This document shows positions 466-21,419 of a stretch of 34,481 nt of DNA, in pieces. The notes under the pieces were generated by a model, which ran no database searches, was not told the DNA's origin, and saw only the letters and a list, made by a program, of their open reading frames with translations. The position numbers and the translations under genes are program-made. Position 1 is the stretch's first letter, and each line of letters begins with the position of its first letter. This DNA is from Desulfuromonadaceae bacterium (lineage in GTDB: Bacteria; Desulfobacterota; Desulfuromonadia; Geobacterales; Pseudopelobacteraceae): contig JAQUCQ010000003.1 of assembly GCA_028686145.1 (NCBI GenBank), positions 1,020 through 35,500 of the forward strand. Direction: 5' to 3'.

Positions 466-2445
466 TCAATATTTTTCCATGTCAAGAGCATCTCGGGACT
501 TCCAAAATATACTTCTGAATTTATTTAATGCATTTTTTAGATAGACTTCAACGCAACTATAATCTCTACTATATCTTCCAGATTTATAATTAATTACCCA
601 TTTACCTGAATATTTCTTTAACTCACCTGATATTCTTGCTGGTTTAAATCCTGTAAGAGTGGGATGCCCTTTGTCTTCCCCTATAAGCAGAGCACCATTA
701 CTTGATATAGCCCATATCAGGCTTAAATTTAACTGCTCAGGATAAATTTCATCTAAATCATCATCTACAGCATCATAAAAAACTCTAACTGAATTGTTTT
801 CTTGTATGTAACCATTAATACACTCTTCTTTATTTATGTACTTTGGGGCTCTTAAGTCTCCATAAGTGGTACTCAGGTAGTCTGCATAATTATCTTTAGA
901 TTTTTTGAAGTTCTTCAATAATGAGCTAAAGAAGTTTTTTGAATGTTGTTCTGTTATAGATATGTTTGATTCAACACACTTGTTAATTATACTCAAAGGA
1001 AATTTTGAACTTTCGCCATTCTCAATATATAACCATGAAACAGCGTTTCCCTGAGGTATGTCCGTTGCATCGAATAAAATCTTAAATGCAGGTATGCCGT
1101 TGACTTGAAAACTTGCAACCCACTGGAATCGTGCAAAACTATGAGTTAATAGTTGTGCTTTCTTTAGTTGAGCAATCTCAATGTCACAGTTTGCTAAGCT
1201 TACATCAGATTCAAATATAGTATTCTTTAGTTCAGAAATTCCGCACAACTTGAGGTTAAAAGAATAGTATTTATCTAATTCCTCTTTACTAATTTGTGTA
1301 TCCGTCTTTAAGTGCCATTTTTTGCATTCCGTCAGCAATAATTGACATGTATTTCTTGGTAACTCATAGGAGATACGCACCTTCTTATGTGTAGGAACTA
1401 TTAGAGTTTGAGGCATCAAGAATTCATGAGGCTCTTCCCAATTTCCGTTGTCATCTTTCCTCTGCAAAGTTAGTTCGCACTTTTTACCAACTTCTGTTAT
1501 CACTGCTTTTGCAAATGGACCGAGGCGGTCATCGTGTACGTACAATACATTATGAACATCTTTTTCAGCGTAGCCCAATATTGTAACAGCATGCCCGCCA
1601 CTCTCTTCGCCTTGCTTGCGAATAACTACGCCTAAAATTAACGGTATATTGCTATCAATGTGATATTTAACTGTATCAAAAAGCCTCTTTGCACTCACCT
1701 CATTCAGTGACTCATTATGATACTTTAGTCCTTCTGCATCAAGAGCGCGAAGAATTTGCTTATTTGTCAAGCCGTCATTTGGAAAACGATTACTCGAACC
1801 GTCTATATGATTAATTGCGTTTGTAGTAATTTCGCTGCAAGCAGGAATTTGTCGGACAGATTTCTCTTGGCTTCCATGAAGGGCAGTCCAAATGGCTGTA
1901 GTGGCGCAAGCTGATACGACTGTATCTTGCTCTTGAAACGCGACGGTATCAATGTTTAGCTTAATTCCAAAGAGATTTACATCGTAGCGCTTAAAAAGGA
2001 ACTTATTGCCGGGTTCATTAACCCCAAGAGAGGAATATTGCTTTAAGCAGGTTTTGCCAATAAAGGTCTGTGAGAGGGGTTTAATAACAATAAATCCAAG
2101 GTAGGATTCAACGATTGACATGCACTCTTCAGAGGAGGGACTTGTTTTTAATGCTTTATCAAGTGTTGTGTGGTCAATTTTGCTATTAAAAAAGTGCAGT
2201 CTTGCACACTTATGACCGCCGTTGTTGAAACATTTGACATAGTACCTTGAATAATCTTCAAGATAATCTTTATCAATATATTCTCTCTCAAGCAATACAG
2301 ACTTCGCACCTAAATCTTTTAGATAGTGGAAGAGATATACAAGCTGAGTTTTCTTAAAGATGTCGGGAAAGTCAGAGCCAAAACATTCTTTGACTAAATT
2401 ACTTACGGTAGGTCTACTAAACTCACAGACTAAGTATGGAATCAT
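466..2445 (-). CDS. Large protein with C39/papain-like cysteine peptidase-type central domain
   Basis: Long 659-aa ORF; motif order Cys (TVVSACATTAIWTALHG), His (GGHAVTILGYAE), Asp (VHDDRLGPFA) resembles papain/C39-fold proteins; rest unrecognised. Confidence 0.7.
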   Translation of the reverse strand: MIPYLVCEFSRPTVSNLVKECFGSDFPDIFKKTQLVYLFHYLKDLGAKSVLLEREYIDKDYLEDYSRYYVKCFNNGGHKCARLHFFNSKIDHTTLDKALKTSPSSEECMSIVESYLGFIVIKPLSQTFIGKTCLKQYSSLGVNEPGNKFLFKRYDVNLFGIKLNIDTVAFQEQDTVVSACATTAIWTALHGSQEKSVRQIPACSEITTNAINHIDGSSNRFPNDGLTNKQILRALDAEGLKYHNESLNEVSAKRLFDTVKYHIDSNIPLILGVVIRKQGEESGGHAVTILGYAEKDVHNVLYVHDDRLGPFAKAVITEVGKKCELTLQRKDDNGNWEEPHEFLMPQTLIVPTHKKVRISYELPRNTCQLLLTECKKWHLKTDTQISKEELDKYYSFNLKLCGISELKNTIFESDVSLANCDIEIAQLKKAQLLTHSFARFQWVASFQVNGIPAFKILFDATDIPQGNAVSWLYIENGESSKFPLSIINKCVESNISITEQHSKNFFSSLLKNFKKSKDNYADYLSTTYGDLRAPKYINKEECINGYIQENNSVRVFYDAVDDDLDEIYPEQLNLSLIWAISSNGALLIGEDKGHPTLTGFKPARISGELKKYSGKWVINYKSGRYSRDYSCVEVYLKNALNKFRSIFWKSRDALDMEKY

Positions 2446-2900: not shown

Positions 2901-4562
2901 ATGGCAAAGGCGATGAAAGTCTCGGCAGGCAAAGCCGGACAGTATTACTATGAGAAAGACCCAATCTGTGCCAAAGAAGGACTTGGTAGTAATCTTACTT
3001 GGTTCGGAACAGGAGCTGAGACTCTCGGTTTATCTGGCAAGCTACACGAAGCAAACGGGCTGGAATCCTTTACCAACCTTCTTTATGGCTTGACCCCTGA
3101 CGGCAGCTCCCGTCTTGTCGGGCATGAGACCGGCGCAAAATCCCACGACAAGAATTCCGCAACCGATATTCCTCTCACGCTTTCAAAATCTTTTGGGATT
3201 GTTGCATTGGAAGACCCGCAGGCACGGGAAGCAATCAGCCGTGTATTCCATAATGTAGCTGAACGCATTGAAGACCACGTTTTCGGTAGACAGACTGTTG
3301 ATGGGGAGACCAGTCAGGTCAAGGGACAAATGATAGCTGTGCTTGCAGAACATTCTGTATCACGGGCAGGCGACACCCACCCACACGGACATTTGGTTAT
3401 CATGAACAATGTAATCAGACCTGACGGAACCCACAGCACTTTAGAAAATTTCGAGCTGATGAAAGCCCAGAGTAGTATTCAACAGGATTTGTATAACGAA
3501 GTGGCACGGGAATTTAAGTCCCTCGGTTATGCAATTGAAACCAGCAAGGTCGGAAACCATGTAATTCCAGAGGTCGCTGGCATTGATAAGGAGACCAGAG
3601 ACCTTTTCTCAAAACGCCACCACGAAATCAAAAATGCATCAGAATTGAAGGAAAGCCTGCGTGAGCGTATGCCGAACGCAAGCGATATCAGGATAGATAA
3701 CCTTGCCCAGTTGCTAACCAAAAATGCCAAAGACCAAAACCTGACTGAACGGGAGGTTGTTGATTCCCATAGAGAGCAAGTTTCTGCTGCCGGTAAAAGC
3801 TTACCAGTAATGATTAGCGAAGCAAAGGCAATGGGGCAGTCAGCAACACATGAGCAACACACAGCAGACGATTACGTCAGATTCGCAATTCAGGACGAGC
3901 AAGAAAAAGAAAGCGTCTTCTCCTCTCGGTCAATCATAAACAGCGCAATCCGTCTCGGCTGTGGCGACGTAATCCGGTCAGAAGTTGAAGAAGCATTTAA
4001 TAAAGCGGTTCAATCCGGGGAACTGGTCAAACTCGGCAGAGACAGCCGAGGGAATGAAGCCTTCTCAACCCCTCAAATGATTGCCATTGAAAAACAGATT
4101 GCCGTGGCAACCGTTGACGAGGCAAACAAGTTTTCCCCACTCCTCACACCAGAGCAGACTGAAAAGGCTATTCAAACCTTTCAAGCTGAAAAAGGCTGGC
4201 AGGTATCTGCAGGACAACGGAATGCAATTGAGACTGTTCTGCAAAGTTCAGGTCGCCTTGCAATCATTCAGGGCGATGCAGGAGCCGGAAAATCCACAGC
4301 CTTTGAGTGTATCAACAATGCCCTTAAAGATATTCCGGGGCTGGAAGTAAAAGGACTAGGCTTTCAGGGTAAAGCTTCCGCCGAACTGGAACGCAGCAGC
4401 GGTATCGCATCGCAAACCGTTCATTCATTTCTTGCAGAAAAAAAAACTCCTTCCCATCCGAGACATCTCGCCAGCTTTGGGTCGTTGATGAAGCCTCCAT
4501 GCTTGGCTCCGTTCAGCTTGGACAACTTTTGGAACGCGCTCAAGACCAAAACGCCCAAATAG
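2901..4562 (+). CDS. MobF (TrwC/TraI-like) conjugative relaxase, N-terminal part including helicase Walker A; frameshifted
   Basis: TrwC-type relaxase features (AGKAGQYYYEKDP, His cluster THPHGHLVIMNN), Walker A GDAGAGKST; ends in nonsense residues after A9 run. Confidence 0.88.
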   Translation: MAKAMKVSAGKAGQYYYEKDPICAKEGLGSNLTWFGTGAETLGLSGKLHEANGLESFTNLLYGLTPDGSSRLVGHETGAKSHDKNSATDIPLTLSKSFGIVALEDPQAREAISRVFHNVAERIEDHVFGRQTVDGETSQVKGQMIAVLAEHSVSRAGDTHPHGHLVIMNNVIRPDGTHSTLENFELMKAQSSIQQDLYNEVAREFKSLGYAIETSKVGNHVIPEVAGIDKETRDLFSKRHHEIKNASELKESLRERMPNASDIRIDNLAQLLTKNAKDQNLTEREVVDSHREQVSAAGKSLPVMISEAKAMGQSATHEQHTADDYVRFAIQDEQEKESVFSSRSIINSAIRLGCGDVIRSEVEEAFNKAVQSGELVKLGRDSRGNEAFSTPQMIAIEKQIAVATVDEANKFSPLLTPEQTEKAIQTFQAEKGWQVSAGQRNAIETVLQSSGRLAIIQGDAGAGKSTAFECINNALKDIPGLEVKGLGFQGKASAELERSSGIASQTVHSFLAEKKTPSHPRHLASFGSLMKPPCLAPFSLDNFWNALKTKTPK

Positions 4563-5938
4563 TTCTGGTCGGCGATAGCAAACAGATTTCTGCCATCAAT
4601 AGCGGCGACCACCACGGACGACTCCAGCAGTTTGAACTCGCCCAGACAGCACACATGACAGAAGTCAAACGTCAGAAATTTTATGACAAGGACGGCAACC
4701 AACTGCGTCCTGAGCGGGGAGATAATCTTGATAATGCAGTCAACCGTTATGCAGTGGAAATGGCTCAGGATTTAAAAATTGGAGACTTCAAATCCGCTTT
4801 TGAAAAACTTGAACAGGCTGGTCAAATCACAGAGTTTTCCGACCGGCAGGAGCGCCTTGATTATGTTGCACAAAGATATGTTGAGCACAACGACCAGCAG
4901 AACATTACAGTTATCACTGCTACCAATCGGGACAGGAAAGACGCAGTTGAACAAATCAGAGAATTACAGAAAGAGCATGGTCAAATCGGGCAGAGAGATT
5001 TCACCGTCAACGTCAATGACCCAGTCGCAACGTCTGGCGTGTTCCGCCGACTGGCGACCAGCTATGCAGTCGGTAATTTTGTCTCTCTCGGCAAAGACAT
5101 TGGAGAGTTAAAAGCCGGTTCTGTTCTGCGAATTGCAGATATTGACCGTGCAAATAATCAGCTTGTCTTTGACTACTCTGACCCAGCTAACCGGCTCAAG
5201 TTTGAGTACTCCAATACAGATAAGATTGCGGAACTTTCCACCAGTGCAGAGACCGGTACTATCAGCCTGAAACAGAATGGTGCCAGCCTTGCCCAGTTTC
5301 AGCAAGTTGAGACCAATTTTTCCGAGGGTGAAAAAGTCATGTTCTTGAAAAATGACAACACCGAGTACGGCAAAGCCAACGGCATAAAAAACGGGGTGCA
5401 AGGCTACATTCAGGAAATAAATGAGTCTGGCATCGCAAGGATAAAACTTGAAAACGGCAAAGAGATTGAACAGCAGCTTGAAGGTGCATATCTCACCAAC
5501 GGGCAGGCAATCACTATCAACAAATCACAGGGAATATCTGTTGAGCGCGCACTTGTTCTGACGCCAGCAGAAGGCGTCGGAGACCTGCTTAACTCCAAAT
5601 CCGGCTACACGGCTTTGACCCGCCATGAAAAAGAGGTTGAGGTAATAACCGACAACAAAGAAGAGCTTCTGGAGGCGGTCAGCCGGAATGCAGAAAAGAC
5701 CAGCACGCTGGATTACATGGACAAGGCTGAAATGCAGGAACTGCAATGCAGGGTACGGGAGAGTAGGCAGGAGCAGGAACCCCAAAATGAACTGACTGAA
5801 ATAGCGGAACGGGTTTCGGAGGGCGGAGAGCAGGAACCAGATAATAAACAGCAGCTGACCGACAGAGACCAAGAGCCAAGCGAGAAAACAGCCATCAGTA
5901 AAGATGAACAAGAACAGGAACTAGAATTATCCAAATGA
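4499..5938 (+). CDS. MobF relaxase C-terminal helicase part (continuation of previous ORF in -1 frame)
   Basis: The frame upstream reads PSETSRQLWVVDEASMLGSVQL (Walker B), then VLVGDSKQISAI and late TraI helicase motifs (AITINKSQGISVERALVL, YTALTRHEKEVEV). Confidence 0.85.
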   Translation: MLGSVQLGQLLERAQDQNAQIVLVGDSKQISAINSGDHHGRLQQFELAQTAHMTEVKRQKFYDKDGNQLRPERGDNLDNAVNRYAVEMAQDLKIGDFKSAFEKLEQAGQITEFSDRQERLDYVAQRYVEHNDQQNITVITATNRDRKDAVEQIRELQKEHGQIGQRDFTVNVNDPVATSGVFRRLATSYAVGNFVSLGKDIGELKAGSVLRIADIDRANNQLVFDYSDPANRLKFEYSNTDKIAELSTSAETGTISLKQNGASLAQFQQVETNFSEGEKVMFLKNDNTEYGKANGIKNGVQGYIQEINESGIARIKLENGKEIEQQLEGAYLTNGQAITINKSQGISVERALVLTPAEGVGDLLNSKSGYTALTRHEKEVEVITDNKEELLEAVSRNAEKTSTLDYMDKAEMQELQCRVRESRQEQEPQNELTEIAERVSEGGEQEPDNKQQLTDRDQEPSEKTAISKDEQEQELELSK

Positions 5939-15002: not shown

Positions 15003-15248
15003 TTAATATCTGCTCGAATAGTGAGAAGAGTGTGAAGAATGTGAAGAATGTGAGCTGTGTGAATAGTGCCCAGCCTCTTCCATGTTGGGTCTGAACTGGT
15101 TGCTGGCATGGTCTAAAACAAGCGGTGAACTTTCGGTAACACCAGATTGATAAATCTGGGTTGAAGCTTGTGAAGCAGTGTCAGTGAATCCAATTACAGC
15201 TGCAAGTGATGCACACACGGTTAAAAGCTTTCTAAATCCAATCGCCAT
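15003..15248 (-). CDS. hxsA: His-Xaa-Ser repeat peptide (HxsA-type precursor)
   Basis: Signal-like MAIGFRKLLTVCASLAAVIGFTDTASQAS; C-term HYSHSSHSSHSSHSSHYSSRY; SD gggaggtg before ATG at 15248; adjacent to hxsC/B/D. Confidence 0.85.
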   Translation of the reverse strand: MAIGFRKLLTVCASLAAVIGFTDTASQASTQIYQSGVTESSPLVLDHASNQFRPNMEEAGHYSHSSHSSHSSHSSHYSSRY

Positions 15249-15340
15249 TTCAACACCTCCCTTCAAGTATTTTAATTTTATTAAATTGAACTCATTTATA
15301 GAATGTAATTACCATATTTCAAATAAAAATCAAGCGAGAA

Positions 15341-16468
15341 TTAAATTATTTTGCTAACCGTTGGGCTAACAAACTTACCAGAAGTGCTAAAAAAGCCACA
15401 ACACTCTGATATTTTTATACAACCATCACAAGCAGGTAGATAGTCATTTTTCCAGTCCGAAATGGATTGACGAGCAAATAGCCAAGATGCGGGAGTGAGA
15501 AGGCAATAAGGAATATTGTAAATTGAAGTATTCAGGAACGCTCTGTGAAGAATTTTAGAAGCATTTTCAAGCTGTTTTTTATATTCAGCAGGGTCAATCC
15601 ATACCTTATCGTAGTTGCTTCTTGCATAACCTGTTATTTCCATACCCATGAAAGCAACATGGTAGACGAACGGAAAGTTCCGATATAAAAAATATGCAAA
15701 CTCTTCAAGTCGCCCATAGTTCAATTTGTTTATAACGTGCCTGATTTCAACTTTTTGTCTGAATTTTGCGAGATTGTAGAGACCTTGAATAGTCTTTTGA
15801 AAGCTACTTTTGCTACCAGATATTTCATCATTCAATTCCTCTATATCTGAATGCAATGAAATACAGATAAGGCAATTAGAAAGGTTTACAGAAGAAAATT
15901 CTTTTGCAAAATTGAAATCAGAAAAACTCCTTCCATTAGTTAGCAACATTACTAATGCGTGGTCAAACCTTTCTTTTATTTTCTTTAATATATTTAAAAA
16001 TTTCTCACCTAGTAATGTCGGTTCACCACCTGAAATACATATTTTTGAAATTTTGCTTGGTTCAAGTCTATCCAGAAGCTCCATAGCGATATAGTACAAC
16101 TCATCGTCGTGCTTCTGTGGAGGTTGTGGACACATAAGACATCTACAATCACACGAAGCAGTAGGAAATATGGTGTTGCTATCAGATTTGGTGTCCCATA
16201 CAGTAGTTAATAATCCATTGTTTCCTATGTGTATTATGTCACCTTCATTTAAATCAGCTAAATCTTTATTTTCAATTATGAAAACAGATTTAGCTTTATC
16301 AGATACGTGTTTATTGTCTGTTATTAAAACAGAATATCCGAATGGGCTAGAAGATATTCCTGACCCAACGTAAGCTTTTCCTCTACGATTAAATACTGTT
16401 TTATTGTATGTTACTTCCGCAATAATATTTTTATCAATATTTTTTAGCTCACCTTTAAATACCTTCAA
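15341..16468 (-). CDS. hxsC: His-Xaa-Ser system radical SAM maturase HxsC
   Basis: CxxxCxxC-type site SCDCRCLMCPQPP, ISGGEPTLLG; position between hxsA and hxsB. Confidence 0.87.
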   Translation of the reverse strand: MKVFKGELKNIDKNIIAEVTYNKTVFNRRGKAYVGSGISSSPFGYSVLITDNKHVSDKAKSVFIIENKDLADLNEGDIIHIGNNGLLTTVWDTKSDSNTIFPTASCDCRCLMCPQPPQKHDDELYYIAMELLDRLEPSKISKICISGGEPTLLGEKFLNILKKIKERFDHALVMLLTNGRSFSDFNFAKEFSSVNLSNCLICISLHSDIEELNDEISGSKSSFQKTIQGLYNLAKFRQKVEIRHVINKLNYGRLEEFAYFLYRNFPFVYHVAFMGMEITGYARSNYDKVWIDPAEYKKQLENASKILHRAFLNTSIYNIPYCLLTPASWLFARQSISDWKNDYLPACDGCIKISECCGFFSTSGKFVSPTVSKII

Positions 16469-17912
16469 GGCGAACCTCCTTTAACGGACGTCTCGTAATC
16501 CAAGCCCAGAAAACATCCAATGTATCGCTATCTTTTTCTTTCAGCTTTTTAAACAGAATGTCGAATATAGCCATATTTTTTTCACAAAAACTACTTCCGG
16601 GTCTTTTCCCTATTAAATCACCATATTCAAGATAATTTCTGATGGGGTCTGCTCCACAATATGTTTTATACATACATGTAGAACATCCCGGCATAATTTC
16701 TACAATCGACTTTGATACAATTTCACGTAATACCGAACCACCAAATATCTCATCATAAGAATCAACAAATACGTTTCCCATTTTAAATTTAGTATCACCC
16801 ATTCGTGCTAACATTCTTGCTTCATCAGCTGGGTAAACATCACCATTATAATCATAAATTACGCCAGCTATGCCTGCACCAGAAGGAGATTGTAAATCAA
16901 CAAAACCAGTTGAAAATGGTGTAAGTATCCTTGATAAAAGAAGTGTAGTAAAATATTCTGAGAAATCTACACCGTTAAGATTAAGTTCGATAATGTAGTC
17001 AAGCGTCTCTTCAAATTTTTCTGTAAAGCGTTTTATTGAATAGCCCAAGTCTGTTGAATTTTCAGCAGCAAGTCCATAAGGATTTAAACTTCTAAGAAAA
17101 ATTCCGTTAAACCCAAGCCTAATATATTCGTCTACTACTTCATTCATGTTCTCAATATTATCAATAGTCGTCGTCATTAAAGCCGAGACTGCGTCATAAC
17201 CACATATACTTCTGGCTTCTTTGAGCTTGTCCAAGAAAATATCATATGTACCAACGCCACTTCTTAATATCCTATTTTTATCATGCAGATACTTAGGACC
17301 ATCTAATGACGTAGATATATAAACACCGTTTTCTTTAAGATATAAGAGCTTGTCGGTGGATATATTTGTGAGATTAGTGCAAATAACAAATTCGAGTTTT
17401 TTCTTTTTGCTTTTGTTAATCAATTTTGCGTGTTCAATAGCACCTGTAAGTGCATTCCAATTTAAACTTGGTTCTCCACCTTGTAATTCAATTTTTATTG
17501 AATTACTTGGTGAATTAAAAGCCATTTCAACAGATTTTTTAGCAACTTCTGGTGACATATCATATTGCATTGCTGTATCGCTTTCAGCGGATACTTGGCA
17601 GTATTTGCAATCTTGATTGCACCTAACAGTTAATACCATCATATGCAAGGTGGTAAATGAAGATATGAAATGTTTTCTTGTTCGATAGCGTGTAGCTATC
17701 ATGTTTACGGCATTGGATAAATCACCAGTAACCATAAACTGTTTGCTTTTTAAAGAATTTATATCTGGCGAATTAGTGGTAAAATCACCTTTAATAAAAT
17801 TGTTCAGCTCAATATAGTCAATAAAGTGATATTCACCACTTTCATTTACCATTAAATATTTGTCTTCAAATCTTCCAAATTGAAATGGCATTATATGATA
17901 ATTATATTGCAC
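16455..17912 (-). CDS. hxsB: His-Xaa-Ser system radical SAM maturase HxsB
   Basis: TLHMMVLTVRCNQDCKYCQVSAESD..., IKIELQGGEPSLNW, C-terminal SPASM-like Cys cluster CSTCMYKTYCGADP. Confidence 0.9.
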   Translation of the reverse strand: MQYNYHIMPFQFGRFEDKYLMVNESGEYHFIDYIELNNFIKGDFTTNSPDINSLKSKQFMVTGDLSNAVNMIATRYRTRKHFISSFTTLHMMVLTVRCNQDCKYCQVSAESDTAMQYDMSPEVAKKSVEMAFNSPSNSIKIELQGGEPSLNWNALTGAIEHAKLINKSKKKKLEFVICTNLTNISTDKLLYLKENGVYISTSLDGPKYLHDKNRILRSGVGTYDIFLDKLKEARSICGYDAVSALMTTTIDNIENMNEVVDEYIRLGFNGIFLRSLNPYGLAAENSTDLGYSIKRFTEKFEETLDYIIELNLNGVDFSEYFTTLLLSRILTPFSTGFVDLQSPSGAGIAGVIYDYNGDVYPADEARMLARMGDTKFKMGNVFVDSYDEIFGGSVLREIVSKSIVEIMPGCSTCMYKTYCGADPIRNYLEYGDLIGKRPGSSFCEKNMAIFDILFKKLKEKDSDTLDVFWAWITRRPLKEVRLEGI

Positions 17913-18195
17913 GATTATCTATTTCCTGTTTCAAATTAGTGATAGGCTTAAATGCATGTTCAACGATTAGTTCCCTAACTTTACCTGCCTTGCTTTCTAA
18001 TTCATAACGTAATTGCTCATCTAAAATATCATCTAATATTTTCTTCTTTAATAAGTCAGCTTTATCTGTTGGTTCTAGCATTAAAAACCAGCAAAACTCA
18101 TTTTCTTCAACATGTATATTTTTATTCAGATATTTATAAAGGACGCCACGGACTACATCAGCCTGATAAAGACTTTTACTTACCTCAATTTTCAT
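17902..18195 (-). CDS. hxsD: His-Xaa-Ser system protein HxsD
   Basis: 97-aa ORF overlapping hxsB start; DDILDEQLRYELESKAGKVRELIVEHAF resembles HxsD. Confidence 0.82.
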   Translation of the reverse strand: MKIEVSKSLYQADVVRGVLYKYLNKNIHVEENEFCWFLMLEPTDKADLLKKKILDDILDEQLRYELESKAGKVRELIVEHAFKPITNLKQEIDNRAI

Positions 18196-19596: not shown

Positions 19597-20919
19597 CTAA
19601 ACAGAATTACCTTTTTGAAAAATCACTTCTATTTTTTCACTTTCTTGCTCGATTCGCGCTAATAGCCTGTTCCACAAAGGGCGAATCTGCTTTCTAATAG
19701 ATTCTGAGTCCATTATTTTTGCAGCTTTATAAGCATACGATATAAAGTTTCTTCTGCCAACATAACCATATTTCTTGTAAAGTTTACTTCTGTAAAACTT
19801 AGAAGGTGGTAAACCATGTTTTAACCTAATTTTATCAGAATTCAGTTTTGCTTTTCCATAAAGATAAACTGAAGATTTCATGCGTTCAGAATACCGTGAC
19901 AGCGCTGCATTTCTAATCAAAATCCTTTGCCCATCAAACAAGAAGCCCAGATATTGCAGTGGTTTATCAGATATCAAATTACCAAAAGAATCAGTATGAA
20001 ATGTTCTAATTTCTTTTTTGTTTTGGTTGATTTCTAAATAATATTCGCTGATTTTCTTCAGAAGACAATCAATAATCTCATCTTTATTATTTACTGGAAC
20101 AATACAAAGTATATCATCGCAGTATCTAAGATACTTACCATCAACTGCATCCATTAGCTGATTTACTTCAGAATCAAATTTAATAAGGTAAATATTCGAT
20201 AAAAGAGCACTTATAGGTGAGCCTTGAGGTATGCCTTTATTTTGCTTGTTTTGATTGATTATACCGGCACGTCTTACTGTTTTTCTGAACGTATCTGAAG
20301 AACAAATCTTATGTCTTCCATTCCTAGGATTATTCAAGGGTATTTTTAGCAGTTTATAAAGCTCAGTCTTATTAACTTCCGAATATCTAGTTATTGATTT
20401 GTAAATGTTAAAATGGTCAGGAGGCAAGCTATTGGTTTCCAATATATATTGCCATGACTTCTTTAATTGTAAATGATTTAGTTCATCAAAGTATTTTGTA
20501 ATATCAAGCCCGATTGCTACACAACTTTTTCTTGACTTTATTTCATCAAAAGCCATTTTAGCAAAGTCTATATTCGATTTACCTAATTTTCTGAAAGCTA
20601 ATATATTTTTATCTAAGTTAAGTTCCTTTAGTTTAATCTCATACTCATTAGATAACAACTGCGAATAATAAGCATATATATAAGAATCAACATGAGATGA
20701 ATACGATATTTTTCTATTCTTTATGACAGTCTCGAGTTTATTTGTTTCTTTATTAAATTTAAATTTTCTAGTTTTTATTATGAAATTAATTGAGGGATAA
20801 AACGGATGGGATGCAATTTTGTCTGGTGATTCTACAAGCTTGATTGCGTTGTCAATAGAAATAGGCTGGTCGAAATGTAAATATGTTCTTTTTTTATGCC
20901 AGCTATATTCTAGTAGCAT
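19597..20919 (-). CDS. drt2: Antiviral reverse transcriptase, DRT2 (UG2)-like
   Basis: RT domain with PQGSPISALLSNIYL and YCDDILCIV; N-term YLHFDQPISIDNAIKLVESPDKIASHPFYPSINF matches the DRT2 family as recalled; solitary RT with ~290-nt structured upstream region. Confidence 0.82.
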   Translation of the reverse strand: MLLEYSWHKKRTYLHFDQPISIDNAIKLVESPDKIASHPFYPSINFIIKTRKFKFNKETNKLETVIKNRKISYSSHVDSYIYAYYSQLLSNEYEIKLKELNLDKNILAFRKLGKSNIDFAKMAFDEIKSRKSCVAIGLDITKYFDELNHLQLKKSWQYILETNSLPPDHFNIYKSITRYSEVNKTELYKLLKIPLNNPRNGRHKICSSDTFRKTVRRAGIINQNKQNKGIPQGSPISALLSNIYLIKFDSEVNQLMDAVDGKYLRYCDDILCIVPVNNKDEIIDCLLKKISEYYLEINQNKKEIRTFHTDSFGNLISDKPLQYLGFLFDGQRILIRNAALSRYSERMKSSVYLYGKAKLNSDKIRLKHGLPPSKFYRSKLYKKYGYVGRRNFISYAYKAAKIMDSESIRKQIRPLWNRLLARIEQESEKIEVIFQKGNSV

Positions 20920-21213
20920 TCAAAATGCCTTTGTTTAAGATAATAGCCAACCGAGAGGGAGTTAGATGGCGGCAGTCTACAATCTCCACTCTCGGCTAAA
21001 CCGGAACGATAAATTCGTTCATTTCACCGACAATAGTCGATTTAGCCGCGTATGCTAGAAATGATGTACAATACAATCAGGGAGACAATAAATATGTTAT
21101 ACAGCAACACATTCAGCGTCTGGCGTCTGCTGTTCACAGTTACGATGAAACTGCTACTTGACAGACTGCTGCATTTCCCTCGCCCCATTTGCTAGGCAAG
21201 GCAGTTTATATTT
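20920..21213 (-). ncRNA. Putative DRT2 template ncRNA
   Basis: Noncoding, densely paired: CCTTGCC/GGCGAGG, CAGTT/AACTG, ACAGCA/TGCTGT, three-way junction CGGCTAAA/TTTAGCCG enclosing CGAC/GTCG and GAACGA/TCGTTC, CCGAGAGtGGAG/CTCCCTCTCGG; weak -35 CTTAAA and -10 TATAAT upstream (21220-21225). Confidence 0.7.
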
Positions 21214-21419
21214 GAACTTATTATAAAAAAACTCAAGCTAAATTTAAGCACGAATCTTTAAAAGGAAGTCTTCCAATAAGCGATTTCAAACTTCTTTAAA
21301 GAATTTTTCAGGGATATACCAAAAGTAGATACCAACCTGATAAACGTCTTTATTTATTAAGTATTGCACGTTTCGTGTCTGTTTCATCCTTCATTGCGCT
21401 TCATTCTGTACTTCCACCG

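What the first reader, a model, noticed from the sequence alone, without database searches (positions are those of the whole stretch)
21045..21191. Stop-free frame through the putative DRT2 template: candidate neo repeat
Seen: one ncRNA-sense frame is open for 147 nt between the 5' hairpin and the 3' three-way junction, reading QMGRGKCSSLSSSSFIVTVNSRRQTLNVLLYNIFIVSLIVLYIISSIRG. Antisense frames are also open (about 21046-21194 and 21000-21158). The sense product would be strongly hydrophobic, so a concatemer could be membrane-active. I cannot fix the template boundaries; ACA triplets, which I recall as jump motifs in studied DRT2 systems, occur at 21131-21133, 21095-21097 and 21065-21067 but give no convincing ~120-nt pair. 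An open stretch this short is not improbable by chance.
Basis: partly seen in the sequence, partly recalled or inferred. Interest (0 to 1): 0.7.

Follow-up and report, generated by a model that had tools for sequence, protein, structure and literature searches.

The report
DRT2 hidden gene, altered jump motif

Summary
The 147-nt sense frame exists, but dinucleotide shuffles of the ncRNA give one as long 47% of the time, and it is on the wrong strand. The adjacent RT is a DRT2 (NCBIfam equivalog, 545 bits; cut-off 390) and Rfam RT-12 covers the ncRNA 3' scaffold. In experimentally studied DRT2, neo is antisense to the ncRNA. Anchoring the window on 11 related ncRNAs fixes the template at 21056-21169 (+): 114 nt, 38 codons. 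Joining repeats creates TTGACA-17-TACAAT, a ribosome-binding site, an ATG and a continuous antisense frame, EMMYNTIRETINMLYSNTFSVWRLLFTVTMKLLLDRLL. The register matches all 11 relatives (repeats 111-138 nt, all multiples of 3). A candidate this good arises in 5/3000 shuffles. The same scan on divergent DRT2s gives complete neo anatomies with other matched motifs (CGTT/CGTT in rhizobia with RT-13 ncRNA; GTAT/GTAT in two phage contigs), against 1/2268 control windows. So the two jump copies must match, but ACA itself is not required. Everything here is sequence inference; the mechanism is known from KpnDRT2.

The parts
19597..20919 (-). DRT2 reverse transcriptase, 440 aa, YCDD active site intact
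   Evidence: PADLOC Drt2 1.4e-177; NCBIfam NF041746 Drt2 545.5 bits, cut-off 390; KpnDRT2 structure 9c0i 4.2e-125; 46-50% identity to RT-12-type relatives
20936..21204 (-). ncRNA (approximate ends): 5' handle, template, 3' scaffold
   Evidence: alignment with 11 related ncRNAs; single copy in the genome
20942..21057 (-). 3' scaffold, Rfam RF03016 RT-12
   Evidence: 74.6 bits, gathering 44.2, full model 1-117
21178..21201 (-). 5' handle hairpin (8 bp, 21201-21194 with 21185-21178)
   Evidence: fold and alignment with relatives
21056..21169 (+). predicted neo repeat unit (cDNA strand), 114 nt = 38 codons; the ncRNA template is its complement
   Evidence: anchored by relatives, frame open across the junction
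21167..21169 (-). jump motif copy 1: GCA (AGCA with 21170) in place of ACA-1; the first of a tandem GCAGCA lies at 21170-21172
   Evidence: aligned with ACA, 6 nt before TGTCAA in the relatives
21053..21055 (-). jump motif copy 2: GCA (AGCA with 21056) in place of ACA-2
   Evidence: aligned with ACA just before the conserved GCGG block
21171..21173 (-). UGC, left half of the template basal stem (SL2), pairs with GCA copy 2; UGU in the Klebsiella-type systems
   Evidence: sequence and flanks; pairing inferred
21158..21163 (+). -35 element TTGACA of the junction promoter
21067..21072 (+). -10 element TACAAT, 17 bp from the -35 only after repeats are joined
21079..21084 (+). ribosome-binding site AGGGAG
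   Evidence: sequence
21094..21096 (+). neo start codon ATG, in the open frame
   Evidence: sequence
21220..21225 (-). TATAAT, possible -10 of the genomic ncRNA/RT promoter
   Evidence: sequence only; -35 weak

Best explanation
This is a DRT2 anti-phage system. The RT binds the ncRNA encoded just upstream. On infection it copies the 114-nt template (ncRNA 5'-GCAGTCTGTCAA...CATTTCTA-3') into cDNA whose 3' end reads ...GACTGC. That end leaves GCA copy 1, re-anneals to GCA copy 2 just 3' of the template, and synthesis repeats. The concatemer becomes double-stranded. Each junction brings TTGACA and TACAAT to 17 bp, followed by AGGGAG and ATG, so the strand antisense to the ncRNA is transcribed and translated as an endless 38-residue-repeat Neo protein that arrests the cell. 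Shown here: RT and ncRNA homology, template anchors, junction promoter, open frame, matched jump motifs. Inferred from KpnDRT2: jumping, second strand, phage trigger, toxicity.
For: RT is Drt2 and RF03016 covers the scaffold. 12 of 12 RT-12-type systems, window included, have repeat lengths divisible by 3 (111, 114, 117, 129, 138) and one antisense frame open in the same register relative to the junction; the promoter pair stands at 17 bp in the 11 of them measured. The junction LL|EMMYNTI matches LL|EMIYNVI in L007 and LL|ETLYNVI in the Klebsiella type. The unconstrained scan's best hit in the window is this one; 5/3000 shuffles reach it, 2/2000 with a 4-nt match, 1/2268 real control windows. 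Antisense strandedness, the 17-bp junction promoter and the need for homology between the two ACA copies are experimental facts in KpnDRT2 (PMC12039810, PMC11100668).
Against: An open antisense frame alone is weak: 19% of template shuffles have one, 7% the particular frame. The -10 is 5/6 and the RBS-ATG spacing is 9 nt. No close relative (above 50% RT identity) sharing GCA was found, so the motif change rests on one sequence from a draft assembly. Codon-position and synonymous/non-synonymous counts in Klebsiella-type neo show no purifying selection on the peptide; only openness, length and promoter are conserved. The 117-nt alternative from the other GCA of GCAGCA is also open but gives 20-bp spacing.
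Confidence: 0.86

Rival explanations
1. Sense-strand neo: the concatemer is read in the ncRNA sense, giving the peptide QMGRGKCSSLSSSSFIVTVNSRRQTLNVLLYNIFIVSLIVLYIISSIRG or its 38-codon core.
For: The frame is open over 147 nt and stays open across the 114-nt junction.
Against: Opposite strand to experimental neo (PMC12039810, PMC11100668); no junction promoter in that orientation; all sense frames are stopped in 5 of 12 relatives; chance 25% for a circular template and 47% for the 147-nt run; 39% when only the order of the antisense codons is shuffled.
Confidence: 0.03
2. Slip variant: jump from the outer GCA of the tandem GCAGCA, a 117-nt repeat (39 codons), alone or mixed with 114.
For: Both GCAs are adjacent and the frame stays open either way; 117 is the commonest published length (PMC12039810).
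Against: Promoter spacing becomes 20 bp; relatives place the motif exactly 6 nt before TGTCAA.
Confidence: 0.08
3. Degenerate or inactive DRT2: the loss of ACA means jumping no longer works and the open frame is a relic.
For: ACA is conserved in the 42 close homologs of the published set (PMC12039810), and mutants breaking homology between the ACAs lose defence (PMC11100668).
Against: Both copies and the basal-stem partner changed together to a matched set; RT full length with YCDD; frame, length and promoter kept; other DRT2 clades carry other matched motifs.
Confidence: 0.05

Closest known systems
Klebsiella pneumoniae DRT2 (KpnDRT2, PDB 9c0i; neo)
   Same: RT family, 5' handle, template position, TTGACA-17-(-10) at the junction, RBS and ATG, antisense frame in the same register (compared through the Klebsiella-type relatives L015-L021 and the published description)
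   Different: Repeat 114 nt instead of 120; jump motif GCA/GCA instead of ACA/ACA; -10 TACAAT; Neo peptide unrelated beyond the promoter-constrained LLExxYNxI stretch
Photobacterium damselae plasmid DRT2 (L007)
   Same: Closest RT found in the plasmid collection (48%); RT-12; junction TAGAAATGAT identical; promoter 17 bp
   Different: 111-nt repeat; jump sites ACA and AUA (wobble) followed by GAU in both
Rhizobial DRT2 with RT-13 ncRNA (L104, L107)
   Same: RT homology (L104 32%); matched jump motif, 17-bp junction promoter, RBS, ATG, antisense open frame (129 nt)
   Different: Motif CGTT/CGTT; ncRNA is Rfam RF03017, not RF03016
DRT9 and DRT10
   Same: ncRNA-templated repetitive cDNA by UG RTs
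   Different: Protein-primed; homopolymer or short tandem repeats, no coding repeat (PMC12483538, PMC12632851)

Membership tests
DRT2 (UG2) | Drt2 RT, about 425 aa, no extra domain, YCDD | tested here: met
   NF041746 545.5 bits vs cut-off 390; PADLOC; RYCDD in the alignment
DRT2 (UG2) | ncRNA of about 280 nt directly upstream with conserved 3' scaffold | tested here: met
   RF03016 74.6 bits; alignment
DRT2 (UG2) | Two ACA motifs bracketing the template | tested here: not met
   Both aligned positions read GCA. This is a feature of the published close homologs rather than of DRT2 as a whole
DRT2 (UG2) | The two jump motifs are homologous to each other | tested here: met
   AGCA/AGCA
DRT2 (UG2) | Repeat divisible by 3 with one stop-free antisense frame across junctions | tested here: met
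   114 nt, frame 2
DRT2 (UG2) | -35/-10 reconstituted across the junction at 17 bp, RBS and start codon | tested here: met
DRT2 (UG2) | Concatemeric cDNA, Neo translation, growth arrest, phage defence | not testable with these tools
   needs experiment

The most novel reading that the evidence does not exclude
The DRT2 template jump is set by any short matched pair flanking the template, not by ACA: natural systems carry ACA, GCA, CGTT, GTAT and probably TTGA, GAAG or TATGT pairs. Divergent DRT2 clades, where the first papers could not readily annotate Neo, therefore use the same rolling-circle gene synthesis with their own motif.
Probability: 0.65. Interest if true: 0.62.

Novelty: new variant of a known kind. 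Interest (0 to 1): 0.52.

Why it matters
Covariation of the two jump sites in nature is independent evidence that the nascent cDNA end re-pairs with a second copy, as in telomerase. It also gives a simple rule (matched motif, length divisible by 3, open antisense frame, 16-18 bp junction promoter) for reading hidden neo genes in DRT2 systems that lack ACA.

Tried and rejected
ACA pairs in the window: none with a usable repeat. Sense-strand neo: no promoter, not conserved. L008 with anchors ACT/ACT: 145 nt, no open frame; TTGA/TTGA gives 144 nt and an open frame, but no ATG and a hydrophilic peptide, so tentative. L009 and L108: motif and promoter found, start codon context weak or misplaced. 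L003 gave only weak candidates, and L004, L006, L012, L023, L101-L103, L109, L111, L112 no convincing one. Close relatives of the window's RT: none above 50% in the genus, class or phylum samples, genome contigs or viral contigs. Species not established: no 16S in the draft assembly.

Full report
The observation. Alone it carries no weight: in dinucleotide-preserving shuffles of the 265-nt ncRNA a sense open run of at least 147 nt appears in 46.5% of cases.

What the locus is. The gene at 19597-20919 (-) is a DRT2 reverse transcriptase: PADLOC Drt2 1.4e-177, NCBIfam Drt2 equivalog 545.5 bits against a cut-off of 390, and KpnDRT2 structure 9c0i at 4.2e-125. Rfam RF03016 (RT-12) covers 20942-21057 (-) over its full length. 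The ncRNA, about 20936-21204 (-), aligns with 11 related DRT2 ncRNAs in the 5' handle hairpin, the template ends and the 3' scaffold.

Which strand. Two experimental studies of KpnDRT2 show that the template is copied into head-to-tail repeats, that a sigma-70 promoter forms only at the junctions (-35 and -10 at 17 bp), and that neo lies on the strand antisense to the ncRNA (PMC12039810; PMC11100668). Here that is the window's + strand.

Template boundaries. In all the RT-12-type relatives the 5' motif starts 6 nt before TGTCAA (or TGTCCA), the complement of the -35, and the 3' motif lies just before a conserved GCGG block. In the window both places read GCA, or AGCA. The repeat is 21056-21169, 114 nt. 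Joining gives TTGACAGACTGC|TAGAAATGATGTACAAT: TTGACA and TACAAT 17 bp apart, then AGGGAG and ATG at 21094. One antisense frame is open through the junction: EMMYNTIRETINMLYSNTFSVWRLLFTVTMKLLLDRLL.

Comparative test. Twelve systems (window, L007 Photobacterium plasmid, L013, L014 and L100 from genomes of the window's phylum, L015 and L016 E. coli, L017-L021 viral contigs) all give lengths divisible by 3 (111, 114, 117, 129, 138) and the same antisense frame open; the junction promoter spacing is 17 bp in the 11 of them measured (L100 was not measured). Around the junction the window reads LL|EMMYNTI, L007 LL|EMIYNVI, the Klebsiella type LL|ETLYNVI. The sense frames are all stopped in 5 of the 12.

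Chance. An open antisense frame alone has a probability of 19% (7% for the particular frame). The whole set of features is rare: 5 of 3000 shuffles contain any candidate as good, 2 of 2000 with a 4-nt match, and 1 of 2268 real 280-nt control windows. In an unconstrained scan the window's best candidate is the homology-anchored one. The relatives are not independent of each other, so the 12 of 12 is a consistency check rather than twelve separate tests.

The jump motif. ACA is described as conserved in the published close homologs, and breaking the homology between the two ACAs abolishes defence. Here both copies are GCA, and the left half of the basal stem is UGC instead of UGU, so stem and jump homology changed together. 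L007 has ACA and AUA, followed by GAU in both copies, which a G-U wobble tolerates. Beyond RT-12 systems the same scan finds full anatomies with other matched motifs: CGTT/CGTT in Neorhizobium and Rhizobium plasmids (L104, L107; 129 nt; ncRNA RT-13, RF03017), GTAT/GTAT in a Clostridioides phage and a faecal phage contig (L105, L110; 132 and 135 nt), and less complete cases GAAG (L108), TTGA (L008) and TATGT (L009). L104 and L107 are close relatives and count as one case. Several other divergent systems gave nothing. The preprint noted that Neo was harder to annotate in divergent clades; a fixed ACA criterion would be one reason, though I have not seen its methods applied without it.

What is shown and what is inferred. 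Shown: homologies, boundaries by alignment, promoter, frame, matched motifs, chance estimates. Inferred from KpnDRT2: RT activity, jumping, second strand, infection trigger, Neo toxicity. A synonymous-change test on Klebsiella-type neo found no purifying selection on the amino acids, so constraint acts on openness, length and promoter rather than on a fixed peptide.

Setting. The window is nearly all of a 35.5-kb contig of a draft assembly, with MobF relaxase, TraD and ParA: a mobilizable plasmid-like element. Assignment of the contig to that genome rests on the assembly.

Noticed in passing
window 15003-18195 (-): A complete HxsABCD His-Xaa-Ser radical-SAM peptide-modification cluster: HxsA-like SHSSHSSHSS peptide (below the family cut-off), HxsC, HxsB, HxsD.
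   Followed up: partly
window 2901-5938 (+): MobF/TraI-type relaxase-helicase appears as two overlapping ORFs in different frames (2901-4562, 4499-5938): a frameshift, a split gene or an assembly error.
   Followed up: no
L104 1406-1475 and L107 918-987: Rfam RT-13 (RF03017) lies directly upstream of rhizobial DRT2 RTs, so RT-12 and RT-13 are both DRT2 ncRNA scaffolds.
   Followed up: partly
window 466-2445 (-): 659-aa protein with a C39-like peptidase domain and otherwise unassigned.
   Followed up: no
G000:C39:13577-13816 (L002): Second, distant RT fragment in the same assembly (37% over 78 residues).
   Followed up: no
L011 3001-3123: Shewanella baltica plasmid pS22302 carries a 41-residue remnant of a DRT2 C-terminus (63% identity to the window RT) beside the same kind of integrase and methyltransferase genes as the intact Photobacterium copy L007.
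   Followed up: no
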